DNA of 64,000 nt from positions 160,401 to 224,400 of the forward strand of contig JAFXVN010000072.1 of the NCBI GenBank assembly GCA_017524545.1. Direction: 5' to 3'. Positions 1-12,765 of this stretch are shown here, one piece after another. The position numbers were made by a program, and so were the translations under genes. The notes below the pieces were generated by a model, which saw only the letters and a list, made by a program, of their open reading frames with translations, was not told the origin of the DNA and did no database searches. Numbering within the stretch: the first letter of the stretch is position 1; each line of letters starts with the position of its first letter. The DNA is from Bacteroidaceae bacterium (GTDB lineage Bacteria; Bacteroidota; Bacteroidia; Bacteroidales; Bacteroidaceae).

Positions 1-1337
1 GTTTCAGGAATGCCAAATCTGTTTCTAAGCGACTTGTTTGTCAAAGCATCACCTTGTATATACATTAGACATGCATGTAGATAGCATGACCACAGTTTGT
101 CCTCCATCGGAATATTGCTAAATTCCATTTCAGAGAAAAGAGTAACCTTGGTGCTATCTTGGAAAACTTCAATGCGAGGAGCTGGAAGATATTGAGCTTC
201 ACATGCCAGTACCATTCTGTCCCAACCACGGCCAAGTTCCTCACACATCTTTAATCGACGCATGAGTGATGCCAGTTTCTCATTTCTCGATTTTGGAGGG
301 TTGTCAATTATACGAAGTACATCTACCAATGGAGTACCAGGATTCGTCACCTCAATACGATTGTCAAATATCTCCACTACAGGAGCGGCCCCTGTTATGT
401 ACAGGTCTTGATGAATAAGACTATTTGCGATGGCTTCTCTTACAGATGGCAACGGGAATTTGCTTGTTGTTGACAGTTGGACAGCATTGACATCCTCGTT
501 ACTTGGCAATAGAGCATTCACATAACGCACGATATTCTCGAAGCAAACAGCATAGCCCTGTACAAATGATTCTTCTTTCTGAATCAGCAAGCGGTTGATA
601 CCCTTATACTGAACCACACGCATAGCCTTACGCCCTAATCTCGCAAATTCGTTCAAGTCCTTTGCAAATAGCAGAGCACCTAAGTTTGTTATCGAATAAA
701 GACCATTGTCCTGCTTCTGGATGATTTCGTCCTCATTCAAATAATGCACAACAGCCTCTTTCTCTGCTGGCTGTGGTATCTTCAACAAGGTAAAGTATGC
801 ATCCACTTGGAGCAATCTGATAATATCCTCATACCTTTGGTCTGTCTTTACGCAAACGTCTTCAAACTGGGCATGACGTAGCTTGTCCCATAACTGAGCA
901 CGAAATACAGGAAACTCGTGCAACTTCTTGGTGTAGCTGCCACTACGAATATAGTCTATCTTCTGAAATGAAACAGGTTCATTGAGTGCCTTGTGGATTC
1001 GAATCAACTCCACATGCTTCCCGTCTATGTCTGCACCATAGAATTCGAAATCAGCATTTTTAGAAAGAAGGTATCGAAGCCAGTTCTCCAACTCCTGTTC
1101 ACCTTTCTTTTCAAGTTGAAGACGCACCTTAGTACCAATAATCTCATGAGTACCATCATCCACGCCCCAAATCATATAGGCATAATCACGATCGTTCAAA
1201 GTAGCACTATTTGCGAGAGCGCTAATGTCCTCACCAACCATTGTCGGCTCGCAATTGTTATGCTTGAACTCAACCCAACTAACCTCCTTGGGAAGTTTGC
1301 AGAGTTCCTTTACCAGTATGTCGATATTTCCTATCAT
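1..1337 (-). CDS. AlbA_2 (Schlafen-like) ATP-binding protein, 3' end outside window
   Basis: Reading the minus strand from the ATG at 1337 gives an open frame that runs off the window edge (about 445 codons seen). The N-terminus has the AlbA_2 pattern: WVEFKHNN near residue 22, then EDISALANSA and a MIWGVDDG strand. The second half matches the C-terminal ATP-binding part of this family (HATPase_c_4 type): LPSVREAIANSLIHQD followed by EIFDNRIEVTNPG and a CEELGRGWDRM helix. Members are annotated as putative transcriptional regulators or ATP-binding proteins and often occur in defence islands; the true activity is unclear. It is the last of four minus-strand genes and is separated from the upstream nuclease gene by 115 bp, so it may have its own promoter. 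Family assignment is firm, function is not. Confidence 0.82.
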   Translation of the reverse strand, partial: MIGNIDILVKELCKLPKEVSWVEFKHNNCEPTMVGEDISALANSATLNDRDYAYMIWGVDDGTHEIIGTKVRLQLEKKGEQELENWLRYLLSKNADFEFYGADIDGKHVELIRIHKALNEPVSFQKIDYIRSGSYTKKLHEFPVFRAQLWDKLRHAQFEDVCVKTDQRYEDIIRLLQVDAYFTLLKIPQPAEKEAVVHYLNEDEIIQKQDNGLYSITNLGALLFAKDLNEFARLGRKAMRVVQYKGINRLLIQKEESFVQGYAVCFENIVRYVNALLPSNEDVNAVQLSTTSKFPLPSVREAIANSLIHQDLYITGAAPVVEIFDNRIEVTNPGTPLVDVLRIIDNPPKSRNEKLASLMRRLKMCEELGRGWDRMVLACEAQYLPAPRIEVFQDSTKVTLFSEMEFSNIPMEDKLWSCYLHACLMYIQGDALTNKSLRNRFGIPE

Positions 1338-1414
1338 ATTATTACTTCATTTACATAATTATAATCTTACATACTACAACATTATCAACATAGCGGATTC
1401 GAAGTTACTGTTTT

Positions 1415-1426
1415 TATCAGCTGATA
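1415..1426. promoter_or_regulatory. 12-bp palindrome upstream of the AlbA_2 gene
   Basis: TATCAGCTGATA is a perfect palindrome in the 115-bp gap between the REase/PIN gene and the AlbA_2 gene. It could be an operator; a TAACTTCG box (a variant of the Bacteroidota -7 element) lies just downstream on the minus strand. No experimental support. Confidence 0.25.
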
Positions 1427-1452
1427 CATGTTGTTTTTAGGGGGTATATCCA

Positions 1453-3708
1453 TTATTTGTTTATTAGGTTATCTAGACGAGTAATAGTATCGCTTCCTAT
1501 GTTGTTATTATTTATATAGCATTGTATTGCATCTTCCATAATTTTTATAACATCGTTAATAAGTTCTTTTGATTTGAACAAACCTTTAAAGTTGTCATAC
1601 TTTTCTTTGTTCTCTCTATAATGGGCAATAATTCTATATATCACGTTATCAATAGCATTATTTTCTGTGTACTCACCTTCTCCATCAGGGTTTTTATTCG
1701 TCATATATATCTGTGAATCCTTCATTTGAGTAAATCTTTTCGTATATTCCAATCCTACCTCGTCTTTGGGATTTATAATTAAAGCCAAAGAATCTATTAG
1801 CGATGTCGTATGCTGTATAATATCGCCAGAAATAAGTGCTAATATATCCTTGGATATAGTCTCTTCATTAATTGAAAAAGATAATAACGAATACCTGTCT
1901 ATGAATTGGCTTGGTGTAAATTGCATCCATCTTGCCGAGTTTGGGTTCTTTTTATAGAATTCATTGAGCACTCCGAATAGTGTTCTGTCCCATGTGACAA
2001 ATACAGAATCTATTGGATGAACATCGACATCTTTGTCTCCTAAATATTTTAGCATAATTGCATCATTATTGAGGGCAAATGTGGTTTTGAAGCGACCTGT
2101 TTCAGATAGTTTATTCCCTATAATTTTTATTTCATTCTGAATGTCGTATTTAGGAATCTTAATTATTGTTACGCCCATCTTTTCTAGATAGTTCTCTGCT
2201 AATTGACAGTTTATATTTGGGGTATTTGAGATACGAAACTCATAATCATTTAGATACTCTTCAAATGAACCTTCTATTATACCATTATCTCTAAGAAAAC
2301 AATAATGATTATAAAACACATTTCTTGATTCACCGAGCAAAGAAAAACCTGGAAGCGTAGTAAAAGGAATAAGATTCAATGCTTCTTGAATATGTGTACC
2401 GATTTCCCATAAATAACGATTTGTTAGATAAAGCTGTATTTTATTTCTTTTACAATAGTCGCACAATGATTTTGACAACACATAATTGTAGCGACTGTAA
2501 TCACTATTTTTATAGAAGTAACATATAATATGTAACGCTATTGTTGTGTCGATGAATACTTGTTTCCTTTCACGAGCATATTTCTGCAAGTTATCAATAT
2601 TCACTTTCTTGCTAAAAATATAACTTGCACATATTTTTTGTAAATATTTATTCTGTTCGCAAACACCAACTAAATCACTGACTAATTTTTTTTGACTAAT
2701 TTCACTATCTATTTTTCCTTTTACATAATACATCAATTTATTTATAGAAACATTTTCTACAATATTTTGAGCTTCTATTCTTTTGCTGAAATTGTCAATA
2801 TACATATCATTAAGTAATTCTATGTATTCATCGATATATTCTTCTTGATGAAATTCTACCAAGACAGCCCCAATTTGATTAATAAAAAGCTTTTCGTCTA
2901 TTTTGATTTGTTCTATCTGCTTAGATATTTCATCATGAGTATTAGAAGTTAACTCATAAGACTGTATTTCCTTATTATAAAAAATCTTTTTCTCTTTACT
3001 AATCAATTTGTTTATGAGTTTAGTATAAAAAGCGGGATTATCATTAGTTTGAAATTTGTTTATGCACGATTTTGCTATCTCATCTTGTGACATATTCGTG
3101 TTATCATAAAGACATCTCAATATATATGCCTCAACAATCTCTAATTTGACATCAGATGTTTTCCCAAAACTCACCAAATCATAAATTAGATTCTTGTTCT
3201 CATCTTCATATAATGATTTTTTCAATTTGAAATCAGCAAGTCCGCTTGTATCATAAATTACTTGCTGTAAGGCAAAGAACTCTTCTGATTCTTCTGCGAT
3301 TTGGTTAGCATCAACAAATTCCAAATTAATACCATATTCAATTAATGCTTTCTGTTTATATTCTCTTTGAGCTTTATTTGTCAGTTCATACGAATAGAAA
3401 TAGAGTAAATTATTACTCCATCCATATTCTTTCGAGTTTTCCTCTGCCTTAGCTACATCTTCAAATATTTTATTCTTCAACTGTGCTTTTTCTTGAGGTG
3501 TACTTGATTTTTGGATTGTGAGCTGGTATTGTATCTTTCTACCCGCATTATCAAAAACTTTAATATCAATGCCACAATCATTTTTTCCATCCGTTTGTAC
3601 AATGCGATGAAAACCATAGACTTCTTGCAAATAGACCTTTACTATTTTGTCAAACTCAGTTTTTTCACAGGCGGCTATAATTTGCACTAGATTTTTCTTC
3701 CTTGACAT
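1453..3708 (-). CDS. Large putative nuclease: REase-like N-terminus plus PIN-like C-terminus
   Basis: A 751-residue protein I cannot place in a named family. The N-terminal ~130 residues look like a restriction-endonuclease (Mrr-like) fold: GIDIKVF with D48, then a strand with QYQLT (Q62, T64) where QxK is usual, so one catalytic residue would be unorthodox. The middle (about 170-370) is helical and without recognised motifs. The C-terminal part shows the spaced acidic pattern of a PIN-like nuclease: FIDTT (D387), LWEIG (E435), ALNNDA (D549) and VTWDR (D574). It starts 12 bp after the methyltransferase-HIT gene on the same strand, so co-transcription is likely. It is AT-rich compared with the chromosome to the right. 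Both nuclease readings are by eye and need a structure model. Confidence 0.6.
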   Translation of the reverse strand: MSRKKNLVQIIAACEKTEFDKIVKVYLQEVYGFHRIVQTDGKNDCGIDIKVFDNAGRKIQYQLTIQKSSTPQEKAQLKNKIFEDVAKAEENSKEYGWSNNLLYFYSYELTNKAQREYKQKALIEYGINLEFVDANQIAEESEEFFALQQVIYDTSGLADFKLKKSLYEDENKNLIYDLVSFGKTSDVKLEIVEAYILRCLYDNTNMSQDEIAKSCINKFQTNDNPAFYTKLINKLISKEKKIFYNKEIQSYELTSNTHDEISKQIEQIKIDEKLFINQIGAVLVEFHQEEYIDEYIELLNDMYIDNFSKRIEAQNIVENVSINKLMYYVKGKIDSEISQKKLVSDLVGVCEQNKYLQKICASYIFSKKVNIDNLQKYARERKQVFIDTTIALHIICYFYKNSDYSRYNYVLSKSLCDYCKRNKIQLYLTNRYLWEIGTHIQEALNLIPFTTLPGFSLLGESRNVFYNHYCFLRDNGIIEGSFEEYLNDYEFRISNTPNINCQLAENYLEKMGVTIIKIPKYDIQNEIKIIGNKLSETGRFKTTFALNNDAIMLKYLGDKDVDVHPIDSVFVTWDRTLFGVLNEFYKKNPNSARWMQFTPSQFIDRYSLLSFSINEETISKDILALISGDIIQHTTSLIDSLALIINPKDEVGLEYTKRFTQMKDSQIYMTNKNPDGEGEYTENNAIDNVIYRIIAHYRENKEKYDNFKGLFKSKELINDVIKIMEDAIQCYINNNNIGSDTITRLDNLINK

Positions 3709-3720
3709 AATTATACTGAA

Positions 3721-4611
3721 TTAATATTTTTGTTTGCTTGGAATAACTCCCCTTACTCCTCCCTTGGGATTCTCAACATCACCTTTGTAACGTGGAATTA
3801 AATGCATGTGACAATGGAATACACTTTGTCCAGCATATTCACCAACATTGATGCCTATATTGTAGCCGTCAGGATGGAAACGTTCATCAACTTTCTGCTT
3901 CACATATTGCAACACTACATTCATTGCCTCGCGCTCGTGATTAGTGAGGTCAAAATAGTTGGCAACATGCCGTTTGGGAATTATCAGGGCATGACCTGGA
4001 GAAACAGGATAACCATCGTAGAATGCAACGCACGTAGCTGTCTCACATACTATTTCAACCCTCCTTGATAACCTACAGAAGGGACATTTCTCACCGTCCT
4101 TGCGAGGTAGTTTGTTAAAGTGGTTGTATTGATACAGTTCGTAACTCTTGTTGGCAACGAGACTCTTGTATGGCAATTTGACGTTGCACTGATAGGTATA
4201 TTGTTTATGTATGGCGTGGAGTCGGAAGCCTTCTTCTGTCAAGTCACGACGTACTGCAAAATATGCAGTTCCTTTTGGAGAGAGAAGATTAGTAACATTC
4301 ATCAATACCTCCGCTTGGGCATAGGGCTCAAGAACATTCAGTACATAATTACAGATGATGGTATCAAACTTTCCTTCGGGGAAGTCGGGCCGATAGTAAT
4401 AATCATATCCTGTAATGTCGTATCCTTGCTTTTTCAGTTCGTCAGTATCGAATCCGAAACCGCAACCGAAGTCAAGAATCTTTCCTTTCAGCAGTTGATG
4501 TTGCATGAGGTATCTAGTCGGCACAGAAAAGTCTGTGCGTTTGATAGCCGTGAGGTAGGGATGATTTATTTTCTCTGGTTCCATAATCATTTTAGTATTT
4601 CCAGACCTCAA
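3721..4611 (-). CDS. Bifunctional class I SAM methyltransferase / HIT domain protein
   Basis: Residues about 35-125 form a small class I methyltransferase: motif I ILDFGCGFG (45-53), motif II acidic ITGYDYYY, and FDTIICNYVLN as motif IV. A linker follows, then a C-terminal HIT domain with a CPFC metal-binding pair (176-179), the ALIIPKRH strand and the histidine triad HCHMHLIPR (266-274). HIT proteins hydrolyse or transfer nucleotidyl groups. Fusions of this kind are recorded in bacterial genomes, but I know of no assigned substrate. The first ATG lies inside the end of the HNH gene; two further ATGs (at 4590 and 4584) just after the HNH stop codon are equally plausible starts. The overlap implies translational coupling with the HNH gene. 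Confidence 0.85.
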   Translation of the reverse strand: MRSGNTKMIMEPEKINHPYLTAIKRTDFSVPTRYLMQHQLLKGKILDFGCGFGFDTDELKKQGYDITGYDYYYRPDFPEGKFDTIICNYVLNVLEPYAQAEVLMNVTNLLSPKGTAYFAVRRDLTEEGFRLHAIHKQYTYQCNVKLPYKSLVANKSYELYQYNHFNKLPRKDGEKCPFCRLSRRVEIVCETATCVAFYDGYPVSPGHALIIPKRHVANYFDLTNHEREAMNVVLQYVKQKVDERFHPDGYNIGINVGEYAGQSVFHCHMHLIPRYKGDVENPKGGVRGVIPSKQKY

Positions 4612-5662
4612 AACCCATATTCAGGGCAATTTGGTTGATTGGATTAAACGTTCTTTCGTATAGTTTGCGAAAATGAGCATCATCCATGTCCGCCAGTTCT
4701 CTTGCCGTATAACCGAGAGAAATGAAGTCCTCCATAACCTTCGGCTCCTTATTATTCTTAATTAGCAATTGTAAGGAATGATGTTGTAATTCTGCCAATT
4801 TAGGCAAGTAAACGTTCAAGTCTGGGAGATTATTACTCTTTGAAGAATTGATGCTGCCGTCAGAAGGAATCAGGTTCCATAACAAATCATGAGAAACAAA
4901 ACTCCAAGGGATAAAATGATCAAGATCATAATCTTTCGGATGAAGTTCCTTGTCTGTATAGATGCAATGAATAGGACCTCCTATTTCCATCACCATATCC
5001 CAATAATTATGCTGCCTTGCAAGTGAATTTCTAACTTCAGGACGAATCAATTTGCTAGAGATGGCAGGTACGTTGGGATTCCTTGTTTGCAAGAATAACG
5101 TAAGATTCCAATAAGCAAAATCTATTAAAATATTGTAATGTGTATGCAGATAAGTGTCCCAAGCATTATTGAGAACGATGTAGAAATCCGAGCCCTCCTT
5201 GTACAAAGCATATAGACTTCCATTCTCCAATGTCTGGGAACGTCTGACCATCTCCTTGTCATCAGAGGTGTCAATCCATGGGCGTAGGAAACGATAGGGA
5301 ACATTCAGTGTGAGTGTGTTTAATAGTCGCTTTATCTGTTTGTCCTCTAATCTGCTTTTCAAGCCTTCAATGATTATCTGAGAATTGGCATCAATGGGAA
5401 TCTGTGTGATGTGCTGTAAATCCATCACAATATCAAATAGAGAATCGCTCTTACCAAAGGACAGGCGGAAATAGTGAATAGGATACCATGCATTTGCAAT
5501 CATTCTGATTACGATGTCCCATACGCTGATTCTCGGATTGTCCGATTTTGCGTGTATCTGCATAATCGATACAAACCAGAAGAATTTGTATGCTGCAACT
5601 GTATTTGAGAAAATCTTCCCAAGCCGGTTCGTGGTCAGTATGTCAGACGTCGGTATTTGCAT
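4592..5662 (-). CDS. HNH endonuclease domain protein
   Basis: A 356-residue protein with a C-terminal HNH nuclease signature: LDHFIPWS (D248, H249), then LWNLIPSDGSINSSKSN with N263 and N277, the expected spacing for the beta-beta-alpha metal finger. The N-terminal 240 residues are helical and without recognised motifs. It is the first gene of the minus-strand cluster, preceded by a TATCTTTG promoter box at 5736-5743, and overlaps the start of the methyltransferase-HIT gene. HNH domains of this type occur in restriction, toxin and CRISPR contexts; here the neighbours suggest defence or nucleic-acid processing. Domain call firm, role inferred. Confidence 0.82.
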   Translation of the reverse strand: MQIPTSDILTTNRLGKIFSNTVAAYKFFWFVSIMQIHAKSDNPRISVWDIVIRMIANAWYPIHYFRLSFGKSDSLFDIVMDLQHITQIPIDANSQIIIEGLKSRLEDKQIKRLLNTLTLNVPYRFLRPWIDTSDDKEMVRRSQTLENGSLYALYKEGSDFYIVLNNAWDTYLHTHYNILIDFAYWNLTLFLQTRNPNVPAISSKLIRPEVRNSLARQHNYWDMVMEIGGPIHCIYTDKELHPKDYDLDHFIPWSFVSHDLLWNLIPSDGSINSSKSNNLPDLNVYLPKLAELQHHSLQLLIKNNKEPKVMEDFISLGYTARELADMDDAHFRKLYERTFNPINQIALNMGFEVWKY

Positions 5663-5735
5663 TAAATATTCATTATGTCTAAGTATATTTTAATATCTGT
5701 GAATTTTCTTATTCTGAATTGTCAATTTTTGGATA

Positions 5736-5743
5736 CAAAGATA
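5736..5743 (-). promoter_or_regulatory. Promoter -7 box for the HNH cluster
   Basis: On the minus strand the sequence is TATCTTTG, matching the Bacteroidota sigma-ABfr -7 consensus TAnnTTTG, about 75 bp before the HNH start. A TTG lies about 22 bp upstream as a weak -33 box. Confidence 0.5.
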
Positions 5744-9831: not shown

Positions 9832-10161
9832 ATGGCAGAAAAGAAATATTGTATAAAGACAGAAACATTGGCGGGATTTGCAAAGGCCCTGGGACATCCG
9901 GCTCGCATTGCCATCATGAAGTTTCTGGCAAAGCAAGACACCTGTTACTTCGGTGACATTCATGAGGAGTTGCCTATTGCCAAGGCTACTGTAAGTCAGC
10001 ATCTGTCGGCTTTGAAGGAAGCTGGATTGATTCAGGGGGAGATTGAGACACCTAAAGTGAGATACTGCATCAATCGTGAGAACTGGCAGTATGCTCAGCA
10101 GCTGTTCTCGGAGTTCTGGAGCATGGAACTATGCGAGAAGAAAGAGGAGTGCTGCAAGTAA
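9832..10161 (+). CDS. arsR: ArsR family metalloregulator
   Basis: A 109-residue winged-helix repressor: [19 protein letters not shown], the recognition helix [17 protein letters not shown] and a wing before VRYCIN. It lacks the classic ELCVCDL metal-site motif but has C38 in QDTCYFGD and a cysteine-rich tail (C101, C107, C108) that could form the arsenite site. It opens the arsenic operon and has an operator-like repeat in its promoter. Derepression by As(III) is the expected mode. A terminator hairpin follows directly. Confidence 0.92.
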
Positions 10162-10199
10162 TTCTTCTTACGCTCTAATCCTCTCTTTGATATAATTGT

Positions 10200-10229
10200 A
10201 CCCTCGTGGCAGGCTTCGAGGGTTTTCTT
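10200..10229 (+). terminator. Intrinsic terminator between arsR and the rest of the ars operon
   Basis: ACCCTCG (10200-10206) pairs with CGAGGGT (10217-10223), followed by a T-rich run. It would end most transcripts after arsR, so downstream genes rely on read-through or on a second promoter in 10230-10281. Confidence 0.7.
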
Positions 10230-10281
10230 TAAATTAACACGTTCGTTGTTTTGCGAATTGTAAACATTAAACAATATAAGT

Positions 10282-10512
10282 ATGAAACAGATTAAAGTAT
10301 TGGTAAGCTCTTGTGCTTGCAACCAGAAGTATTTCGCTCTCGTAGAGACGGTAGTGAAGAACAACCAGATTGATGCCACCGTGGAGAAGGTGGATGACAT
10401 CATGGAGGTAATGCAGTACAACGTGATGTCGCTCCCTGCATTGGTGGTTGATGGTCAGGTTGTGGCTCGTGGTCAGAAGATCGAGAAGGAACTGCTGGAG
10501 ATTTTGAAGTAA
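10282..10512 (+). CDS. Small thioredoxin-like redox protein
   Basis: A 76-residue glutaredoxin/thioredoxin-fold protein of the small redox-active disulfide family: KVLVSSCACNQKY with C11 and C13 (a CxC variant of CxxC), a DIMEVMQYNVMSLPALVVDG segment with the cis-proline, and a C-terminal helix. It lies in the arsenic operon with a lipoprotein thioredoxin and a CcdA-like permease, suggesting electron transfer for arsenate or organoarsenical handling. Confidence 0.85.
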   Translation: MKQIKVLVSSCACNQKYFALVETVVKNNQIDATVEKVDDIMEVMQYNVMSLPALVVDGQVVARGQKIEKELLEILK

Positions 10513-10538
10513 TTCCCTAACCACAAATGCTCAGGAAT

Positions 10539-10976
10539 ATGAAAAAGTCCATTATCATCCTCATGGCAGCGATTCTTTCTACTGCCACAATCAGCGCTTG
10601 CACGGGTAATAATGCGCCCGAAACAAAAACCGAAACCGTTGCCTCGAAAGAAAGTTCGCCAGTTGAGATCATCTACTTCCATGGCAAACAGCGTTGCAAG
10701 ACTTGCGTTGCCATTGAGCAGGAAACAAAGGCGCTCGTTGAGGGCGAACTTGCACAACAGGTAAAGGATGGCAAGGTGAAGTTCCGCATCGTTGACATTT
10801 CCACCGAAGAAGGCAAGAAGTTGGCTGCGAAATACAAGGTGACGTTCTCGTCGCTCTTCGTAGTATCATCCAAAGGTGCAGAAGACCTCACTCGTTTTGC
10901 TTTCGCTAATGCGAGAAGTAATCCGAAAGAGTTCCGCAAGGAGTTGAAGAACAAGGTAGTGAAAGCAATAGAATAG
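10539..10976 (+). CDS. Thioredoxin-like lipoprotein (sometimes named nitrophorin-type)
   Basis: MKKSIIILMAAILSTATISAC is a lipoprotein signal with the lipid-bearing Cys at residue 21. The mature part is thioredoxin-like with a CKTC active site (C53, C56) after VEIIYFHG, and VTFSSLFVV in place of the usual cis-Pro strand. It is likely anchored in the periplasm. An ATG 12 bp earlier (10527) is possible, but the chosen start gives a standard signal peptide. It ends 3 bp before the CcdA-like permease and probably exchanges electrons with it. Confidence 0.82.
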   Translation: MKKSIIILMAAILSTATISACTGNNAPETKTETVASKESSPVEIIYFHGKQRCKTCVAIEQETKALVEGELAQQVKDGKVKFRIVDISTEEGKKLAAKYKVTFSSLFVVSSKGAEDLTRFAFANARSNPKEFRKELKNKVVKAIE

Positions 10977-10979
10977 CGT

Positions 10980-11723
10980 ATGATGGATTTTCTCAACCAA
11001 CTTCTGGATAATAGCCAGATACCAGTAATCACGGCATTTCTTCTTGGTTTGCTAACGGCTGTAAGTCCTTGTCCGTTAGCAACGAACGTAACGGCAGTCG
11101 CCTATATTGCACGCAACTGTATGGAGGAAAACGAGGACAAAGGCAACGCCAAGCGCAAGGTGCTGTGGAGCGGCATACTCTACACCCTCGGTCGCACGCT
11201 GGCTTACACACTCCTTGGCGCACTCCTTATTTATATTATTAGGCGTGGTGCCGACACGTTCGGACTTCAAAAGTTCATCAGCGAATGGGGCGAACTCATC
11301 CTTGGTCCTGCGCTCATCGTCATCGGCTTGTTTATGCTCTTTGGCGACAAGTTGCATTTGCCGAAGTTTAGCCTCACCCCCAGCCCCTCTCCAAATGGCG
11401 AGGGGAGTTATAAAGGCAATATGGGAGCGTTGCTTCTCGGCATCCTCTTCGCCATGGCATTCTGTCCATCCAGCGGTTTGCTCTATTTCGGTATGCTGAT
11501 ACCCATGTCAGCCGAAGCTACGGCTGGCTATTTGCTGCCCCTCGTCTTCGCCATTGCTACGGCTCTGCCTGTCCTCGTGGTTGCTTGGGTACTTGCCTAT
11601 AGTATGCAGTCGATGGGCAAAGTGATGGGCAAGATAGCTGCATTCCAAAGATGGCTCAACCGCCTCGTTGCCCTTCTCTTCATCGGAGTCGGCATTTATT
11701 ATTCAATCACAATGTTCACGTAA
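10980..11723 (+). CDS. CcdA/DsbD-like permease, ArsG-type
   Basis: A 247-residue polytopic protein with about six membrane segments and the CcdA/DsbD-type cysteine motifs SPCPLAT (near residue 30) and FCPSSGLLYFG (near residue 160). In Bacteroidota ars operons such proteins are annotated as ArsG-family permeases; electron transfer across the membrane is the alternative role. A loop (about residues 131-145) carries LTPSPSPNGEGS, encoded by a palindromic dispersed repeat inserted in frame. The second ATG codon may be the true start. Confidence 0.8.
   Translation: MMDFLNQLLDNSQIPVITAFLLGLLTAVSPCPLATNVTAVAYIARNCMEENEDKGNAKRKVLWSGILYTLGRTLAYTLLGALLIYIIRRGADTFGLQKFISEWGELILGPALIVIGLFMLFGDKLHLPKFSLTPSPSPNGEGSYKGNMGALLLGILFAMAFCPSSGLLYFGMLIPMSAEATAGYLLPLVFAIATALPVLVVAWVLAYSMQSMGKVMGKIAAFQRWLNRLVALLFIGVGIYYSITMFT
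11372..11406. repeat. CCCCTCTCC-type palindromic repeat inside a coding sequence
   Basis: GCCCCTCTCC and GGCGAGGGGAG form an imperfect hairpin of the same class as the intergenic copy at 47007-47039. Here it is translated in frame. Confidence 0.7.
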
Positions 11724-11730
11724 ATAAACC

Positions 11731-12765
11731 ATGGAAAAAGGAATCGGATTCTTTGAGCGCTATCTTACGATATGGGTAGCACTCTGCATAGTATTAGGTT
11801 TGCTTATTGGTCAGAATCTCCCTGCCTTGCCCCGAACACTCAGCCAATGGGAATATGCCAATGTCAGCATCCCGATGTCAGTACTCATTTGGCTGATGAT
11901 CTGGCCAATGATGATGAAGATTGACTTCCGTAGCGTGCTGAATGTCGGACGTAATCCCAAAGGAATCGTCATCACCTGCGTTACGAACTGGATTATCAAG
12001 CCATTCAGTATGTTCTTGATAGCCAAATTCTTCTTGTGCGTTGTTTTCGGACGATTCATCCCAGCATATTTGGCAAACGACTATCTGGCAGGTGCTGTTT
12101 TGCTTGGGGCTGCCCCATGCACCGCAATGGTGTTTGTGTGGAGTCACCTGACCAAAGGTGATGCGGCTTATACGTTGGTGCAGGTAGCCATCAACGACCT
12201 GATCATACTGGTAGCTTTTGCACCTATCGTAGGATTTCTCCTCGAAGTGGGAGGCGTAAGCATACCTTGGGACACTCTGTTGCTTTCTGTCGTTCTATTT
12301 GTCGTGATACCACTTGTTGCAGGTGTCATCACACGTTATATGGTAATCAAGAAACGAGGAAAGGAGTATTTTGAGAACGTCTTCATAGGGAAGTTCAACA
12401 GCATTACCACCATTGGTCTTCTGCTCACGCTTATCATTCTATTCTCGTTCCAGGGCGATGTCATTCTGGAGAATCCCTTCCACATCTTCCTGATTGCCAT
12501 ACCATTGACAATACAGACGTTCCTTATCTTCTTCATTGCCTACCGATGGGCAAAGGCATGGAAACTGCCACATAGAATAGCCTCTCCGGCAGGAATGATC
12601 GGAGCCAGCAATTTCTTTGAACTGGCTGTTGCCGTAGCCATTTCACTCTTTGGCTTGCACTCAGGAGCATCGCTTGCTACAGTGGTTGGCGTGCTGGTAG
12701 AAGTACCTGTTATGCTGACACTTGTGAGAATTTCAAATAAGACAAAACATCTGTTCAACGATTAA
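11731..12765 (+). CDS. arsB: ACR3 family arsenite efflux transporter
   Basis: A 344-residue, ten-segment transporter of the bile/arsenite/riboflavin superfamily. It has the ACR3 signature GAAPCTAMVFVWSHLTKGD with the essential Cys (C130) and a conserved late Glu in VLVEVPVML. It extrudes As(III) produced by ArsC. It begins 7 bp after the ArsG-like gene and is followed 4 bp later by arsC, so one operon. The gene is named acr3 or arsB in different genomes. Confidence 0.95.
   Translation: MEKGIGFFERYLTIWVALCIVLGLLIGQNLPALPRTLSQWEYANVSIPMSVLIWLMIWPMMMKIDFRSVLNVGRNPKGIVITCVTNWIIKPFSMFLIAKFFLCVVFGRFIPAYLANDYLAGAVLLGAAPCTAMVFVWSHLTKGDAAYTLVQVAINDLIILVAFAPIVGFLLEVGGVSIPWDTLLLSVVLFVVIPLVAGVITRYMVIKKRGKEYFENVFIGKFNSITTIGLLLTLIILFSFQGDVILENPFHIFLIAIPLTIQTFLIFFIAYRWAKAWKLPHRIASPAGMIGASNFFELAVAVAISLFGLHSGASLATVVGVLVEVPVMLTLVRISNKTKHLFND

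What the first reader, a model, noticed from the sequence alone, without database searches (positions are those of the whole stretch)
1..5743. Candidate undescribed defence system: HNH nuclease, methyltransferase-HIT, REase/PIN protein, AlbA_2 ATPase
Four minus-strand genes with overlapping or 12-bp spacing (except 115 bp before the last) combine two or three nuclease types with a nucleotidyl-handling HIT domain, a methyltransferase and an ATP-binding regulator. I know no named system with this set. It lies in AT-rich sequence next to an integration hotspot, as defence islands do. The combination suggests one enzyme modifies a nucleic acid or nucleotide and others degrade unmodified or signalled targets.
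Basis: partly seen in the sequence, partly recalled or inferred. Interest (0 to 1): 0.75.

Follow-up and report, generated by a model that had tools for sequence, protein, structure and literature searches.

The report
Portable nuclease–HIT gene pair, swappable partners
The four genes do not look like one fixed defence system: the first two (a DNA-cutting HNH protein and a methyltransferase–HIT enzyme) are a conserved pair that appears to move between bacterial defence gene clusters, sometimes beside intact or broken DNA-sulfur-modification genes, while the last two are exchangeable companions.

Summary
The four genes are real, but only the first two form a unit. HNH lies directly before MT-HIT in 80 of 85 loci, and all 16 of 393 same-order genomes with full-length MT-HIT carry the HNH gene. 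The REase/PIN gene hit 3 of 393 genomes and was seen with the pair only here. Two close relatives keep the pair (82–97% DNA identity) and the start of AlbA_2 (93–96%) but carry other cassettes between them. Elsewhere the slot holds Wadjet, a methylase with a GajB-like helicase, HEC-05 and others.

The pair is linked to Ssp-type DNA phosphorothioation: 15 of 85 loci hold ssp genes or only their truncated 5' ends. Eight scar genomes searched had no full SspD, so the pair outlives the modification genes; its control therefore probably lies in MT-HIT. The HNH N-domain model resembles winged-helix folds and, weakly, ScoMcrA's sulfur-binding domain (79). The papers seen in our searches do not describe the pair. 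Defence activity, targets and HIT/MT substrates are untested. Verdict: a new variant built from known defence parts; the four-gene reading is not supported.

The parts
4592..5662 (-). HNH nuclease, 356 aa: mostly helical N-domain (residues about 1–210, window 5033–5662; predicted winged-helix-like) and Cas9-type HNH domain (residues 233–280, window 4823–4966)
3721..4590 (-). MT-HIT fusion: class I SAM-binding domain (about 4228–4485) and C-terminal HIT domain (about 3760–4032) with the HxHxH triad
1453..3708 (-). Exchangeable cassette: 751-aa protein with REase-like N-terminus and PIN-like C-terminal half; not beside the pair in the other places found
1..1337 (-). AlbA_2 / HATPase_c_4 protein (483 aa, continues beyond the window); right flank of the cassette slot. 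L058 keeps its DNA at 96% but as a 297-aa frame; L052 keeps about its first 90 codons

Best explanation
Shown: HNH and MT-HIT are a conserved two-gene module; genes 3–4 are exchangeable companions; the pair recurs beside Ssp phosphorothioation genes or their truncated remains and beside other defence operons. Inferred: the pair is a self-contained DNA-targeting defence unit. The HNH protein binds DNA through its N-domain and cuts or nicks it. MT-HIT is the control enzyme: the HIT domain hydrolyses a nucleotide or nucleotidyl adduct (general HIT chemistry, recalled) and so restrains or resets the nuclease, and the MT domain adds a SAM-dependent step in the Bacteroidota version. Such built-in control would let the pair ride with any partner cassette and survive when the partner is lost. 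In the window genome the partner is the REase/PIN gene, with AlbA_2 as a putative regulator.
For: Pairing: 80 of 85 loci adjacent, commonest spacing a 13-nt overlap (39 loci); 16 of 16 full-length MT-HIT genomes have HNH against 6 of 377 others, one of these a 41-residue fragment. HIT + HNH with no MT annotated between or beside them in two betaproteobacterial plasmids and Hymenobacter canadensis, and in L047, L048. Single-chain HNH–HIT proteins with a different HNH family in L049 and L050; MT–HNH proteins in Roseomonas (HNH_4 22.3 bits, cut-off 22; with a SATYK motif like that of our HNH family) and Azospirillum (18.7 bits, below cut-off). Cassette slot: DNA identity to L058 stops at the MT-HIT stop codon and resumes about 10 nt before the AlbA_2 start. 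Partners by PADLOC/Pfam: JetABCD, SspC/SspD with PbeA, methylase + GajB-like helicase, HerA–NurA, HEC-05, DdmD-like helicase. Ssp link: ssp genes or scars in 15 of 85 loci, the scars being 5' parts only, needing 10 changes on the MT-HIT tree; none of 8 scar genomes searched has a full SspD, one shows only its 29-residue scar. DUF4007 within about 9 kb of the HNH homologue in 9 of 16 plasmid records with a full-length one. HNH core residues invariant in 48 rows; HIT triad in 82 of 85 frames. No SspD or DndC hit in 14 of 16 pair genomes. HNH and MT-HIT show mosaic divergence.
Against: No experiment; no phage data. HIT and MT substrates unknown. One locus has a degenerate HIT triad (L046). No HIT is annotated near the HNH homologues in eight plasmid stretches read (61–65, 93–95), so HIT is not universal; four of these (62, 64, 93, 94) also show no DUF4007. 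Two HNH genomes (G250, G268) had no MT-HIT/HIT match. Genome-level co-occurrence of DUF4007 with HNH is weak (4 of 22 against 19 of 371, p 0.03; without the two relics 2 of 22, p 0.33). In L106–L122 no gene of 180 aa or more follows within 60 nt (124). Adjacency to defence operons could be ordinary defence-island clustering; no position-matched control was run.
Confidence: 0.5

Rival explanations
1. Phosphorothioate-linked restriction: HNH is a restriction effector of Ssp systems whose N-domain reads phosphorothioate like the ScoMcrA sulfur-binding domain; MT-HIT processes phosphorothioate or adenylylated intermediates. Orphan pairs are leftovers or act as type IV enzymes against incoming phosphorothioate DNA.
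Confidence: 0.25
2. Four-gene defence system.
For: Co-directional genes, 0–115 nt spacing.
Against: REase/PIN gene hit 3 of 393 genomes, own included; no pair beside it in L142 or on the Raoultella plasmid; cassette swapped in L052 and L058, where AlbA_2 is also incomplete.
Confidence: 0.05
3. Selfish or toxin–antitoxin-like pair: HNH nuclease toxin kept in check by MT-HIT, maintained by addiction or by spreading between defence operons, with no defence role of its own.
For: Abutting or overlapping genes, conservation through loss of partners, mosaic divergence.
Against: Repeated operon-like positions inside defence loci; HNH N-domain varies more than the HNH core, as a target-recognising part would.
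Confidence: 0.15

Closest known systems
SspBCD(E)/Pbe phosphorothioation defence
   Same: In L046, L068 and L101 the pair sits directly after sspD of an sspB-C-D run (sspB of L101 runs off the contig; small genes lie between C and D in L068); PbeA and a PbeC-like gene follow in L101. DUF4007 = SspB is recalled
   Different: 70 of 85 loci show no ssp trace; the window genome has no DUF4007, SspD or DndC hit
ScoMcrA (SBD–SRA–HNH, type IV phosphorothioate-dependent)
   Same: DNA-binding-type N-domain plus C-terminal HNH; weak fold match to the SBD
   Different: Only HNH_4 found by Pfam; pair found in hosts with and without SspD; has an MT-HIT partner
ThsC, HIT protein of a Thoeris variant (PADLOC)
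   Same: HIT domain in a defence operon; its authors suggested an off-switch role; our MT-HIT hits the ThsC model at 8.7e-12
   Different: ThsC accompanies Thoeris; here HIT is fused to an MT and paired with HNH. A ThsB-type TIR is the third gene beyond AlbA_2 (110); ThsA was not searched
TIGR04096 phosphorothioation-associated methyltransferase
   Same: N-terminal SAM region, 61 bits over positions 6–85 of 478
   Different: Cut-off is 150 bits; ours is fused to HIT. One search compared only the C-terminal part of a pSYSM member, so it says nothing on the SAM region

Membership tests
   MT-HIT, HNH and REase/PIN searched in 393 genomes, AlbA_2 only in fetched loci
Ssp phosphorothioation system | sspB-C-D modification genes in the genome | tested here: not met
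   window genome: no DUF4007 (53), SspD or DndC (77) hit; SspC not searched in G000; genome 92% complete
Ssp phosphorothioation system | Module found inside ssp loci elsewhere | tested here: met
   ssp genes or scars in 15 of 85 loci; 9 of 16 plasmid records
Type II restriction-modification | DNA methyltransferase domain or motif in the partner | tested here: not met
   MT hits only generic Methyltransf families; no NPPY/PCQ motif by eye (motif knowledge recalled)
ScoMcrA-type SBD–HNH | Sulfur-binding domain | tested here: inconclusive
Thoeris | ThsA effector with ThsB | not tested
   ThsB-type TIR nearby; ThsA not searched
HNH endonuclease | Conserved catalytic H and N residues | tested here: met
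   H249, N263, N272, K275 invariant in 48 rows; catalytic roles recalled from the HNH motif
HIT superfamily | HxHxH triad | tested here: met
   82 of 85 frames; window has HCHMH. Exceptions: L075 (half of a split gene), L104 (frame ends early), L046 (degenerate)

The most novel reading that the evidence does not exclude
HNH–(MT-)HIT is an unrecognised, widespread portable immunity core: a nuclease with its own nucleotide-based control enzyme that arose within or was recruited to phosphorothioation operons, repeatedly outlived them, and pairs with whatever defence cassette is swapped in beside it, giving a common nuclease layer to many otherwise unrelated systems.
Probability: 0.3. Interest if true: 0.78.

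Novelty: new variant of a known kind. Interest (0 to 1): 0.55.

Why it matters
If right, a gene pair annotated in the plasmid records seen here only as 'HNH endonuclease' and 'HIT family protein' is a shared module of many defence operons, and its repeated survival after loss of ssp genes gives a natural experiment on how self-DNA is spared. The HIT/MT control step would be a new type of nuclease regulation and is easy to test. It also warns against defining defence systems from a single co-directional gene run.

Tried and rejected
Rejected: the fixed four-gene system; classical RM; plain Ssp membership of the window locus. Led nowhere: relatives of the REase/PIN protein in viral contigs (none) and by sequence in the PDB (none at E 1); comparison of MT with the Roseomonas MT (only a 26-residue motif stretch, E 0.009); comparison with a pSYSM phosphorothioation-associated MT (no match, but only its C-terminal part was given, so uninformative). 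Twelve viral contigs carry MT-only relatives, not followed. SspE hits in 4 of 13 scar/ssp genomes, three N-terminal stretches and one C-terminal stretch at a contig end, were not interpreted. L067 looks like an HNH–MT-HIT fusion, but its sequence suggests a deletion across the gene junction; not counted as a natural fusion. Foldseek had no hit at E 0.001 or better; missing fold matches show nothing. The tree is a quick one with 28 of 76 inner branches open, and 13 of the 15 ssp loci are on it (L046 and L067 fell under my length/score cut). Mosaic divergence of HNH and MT-HIT (109) could partly be faster evolution of HNH rather than exchange.

Literature: searches (no paper), 80, 84, 85, 119, seen as listings; most listed papers were not opened. 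Passages seen of PMC8565338, PMC10853773 (81, plus outline 82), PMC12839542, PMC6224610, PMC8775712; outline only of PMC8092258. What I saw describes no HNH–HIT pair; HIT does not occur as a whole word in PMC10853773. Subscription papers and preprint servers are largely not covered.

Full report
OBSERVATION. The four minus-strand genes are present, with corrections: the HNH gene begins at 5662, and the AlbA_2 gene is cut by the window edge but complete (483 aa) in the genome. Pfam confirms HNH_4, a methyltransferase plus HIT, and SLFN_AlbA_2 plus HATPase_c_4; the 751-aa protein has no significant hit, though REase- and PIN-like motifs recur in three homologues (by eye). PADLOC gives no coherent system for the set. 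Next to the operon in the genome lie type I RM-like genes (by eye) with a Fic-type gene, a WYL regulator and a ThsB-type TIR.

ONLY TWO GENES FORM A UNIT. MT-HIT was searched in 393 genomes of the order, own genome included: 28 had a hit, 16 of them over nearly the whole protein. The HNH profile hit 22 of 393, one a 41-residue fragment, including all 16. HNH is directly before MT-HIT in 80; the five exceptions are L067 (one frame), L070 and L075 (an 89-aa ORF between), L084 and L130 (no HNH recognised). The REase/PIN gene hit 3 of 393 genomes. In L142 and on a Raoultella plasmid no pair lies beside it, and L140 is a 3.5-kb contig, too short to tell.

A CASSETTE SLOT. Against its nearest relatives the window locus is 97% identical at DNA level over HNH and MT-HIT in L052; in L058 it is 96% over most of HNH and 82% over the rest. 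Homology stops at the MT-HIT stop codon and resumes 10–17 nt before the AlbA_2 start. Between lie, respectively, a 427-aa gene with a DUF4062/STAND gene, and HerA–NurA–DNA methylase. AlbA_2 itself is not intact there: L052 keeps about its first 90 codons, followed by another AlbA_2-type gene of 27% identity, and L058 has a 297-aa frame. In 26 of 85 loci a gene of at least 180 aa follows within 60 nt, from 20 sequence clusters. Identified partners: Wadjet JetABCD (PADLOC on L083; the same clusters in four more loci), SspC and SspD with PbeA and a PbeC-like ATPase in L101, a type II methylase with a GajB-like helicase-nuclease, a DdmD-like helicase, HEC-05 (75) and DUF5131 with a GMT-wHTH protein (its name TcmP is recalled). 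Several partners have no hits. GC content also sets gene 3 apart: 29.9% against 39–43%. HNH and MT-HIT diverge as mosaics: L068 has MT-HIT at 93% but HNH at 44% protein identity, and L058 shows the opposite at DNA level.

LINK TO PHOSPHOROTHIOATION. Seven of 85 loci carry substantial ssp genes (L046, L068, L085, L091, L095, L099, L101; not all have all three). Eight more (L066, L067, L083, L093, L107, L125, L126, L128) carry only the 5' end of sspB and/or sspD upstream of HNH; L036, outside the 85, shows the same. No 3' part of sspB was found within the fetched stretches of the scar loci (some are short), which fits deletion or replacement rather than insertion of the pair into sspB. SspD was then searched in the genomes of eight scar loci (L067 left out): none has a full copy, and one shows only its scar; it is full-length in five of seven genomes with ssp genes, absent in L091's and only a weak hit in L095's. 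L083 has an sspB scar before the pair and Wadjet behind it. On an MT-HIT tree the ssp state needs 10 changes (quick tree, 80 rows, 13 of the 15 ssp loci). On plasmids, 9 of 16 records with a full-length HNH homologue (six different backgrounds; four of the nine are Synechocystis records) also have DUF4007 within about 9 kb, while only 94 of 72,556 plasmids have DUF4007 at all (34 DUF4007 records were not listed, so 9 is a lower bound). Against this, four plasmid stretches read show no DUF4007, genome-level co-occurrence in the order is weak (p 0.03; 0.33 without relics), and 14 of 16 pair genomes have no SspD or DndC hit.

WHAT FOLLOWS. A nuclease that spares host DNA only because it is phosphorothioated would kill a host that lost sspBCD; one that always attacks phosphorothioated DNA would kill a host that has it. 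The pair occurs in both backgrounds, with catalytic-type residues kept. So, unless it is silent, its control should lie within the pair. Whether the ssp genes or the pair are expressed is unknown. HIT-only partners and HNH–HIT single chains built on another HNH family suggest that HIT is the essential half of the control and MT an addition; HNH homologues without an annotated HIT nearby (61–65, 93–95) speak against making this general. This is inference.

VERDICT. A conserved two-gene module in exchangeable defence settings; most likely a self-controlled DNA-targeting defence unit, with a real but incomplete historical link to Ssp phosphorothioation. Function is untested.

Noticed in passing
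L002:13110-14129 (own genome, beyond window start): ThsB-type TIR protein (PADLOC 5.9e-78), small ORF and HTH regulator downstream of AlbA_2; the same HTH gene lies downstream of AlbA_2 in L058.
   Followed up: partly
L002:1189-9613: Type I RM-like genes (HsdM, HsdS, HsdR by eye) with a Fic/Bro-N gene (PADLOC PDC-S04, 1.4e-158) between the HsdM-like and HsdS-like genes.
   Followed up: partly
L135:4126-5453 (Streptomyces phage phiSASD1): Phage gene pair: PAPS-reductase-like protein followed by a HIT protein related to the window's HIT domain.
   Followed up: no
L143-L154 (viral contigs): Relatives of the MT domain in 12 viral contigs; the matches do not reach the HIT domain.
   Followed up: no
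L049:7956-8930, L050:7765-8748: Single proteins joining an HNH domain of another family to a HIT domain.
   Followed up: partly
L142:6839-10391: REase/PIN homologue in two pieces with transposase-like ORFs (by eye) between them.
   Followed up: no
window 9832-12765: ArsR-type regulator, small thioredoxin-like and ACR3-like arsenite efflux genes (read by eye, not searched).
   Followed up: no
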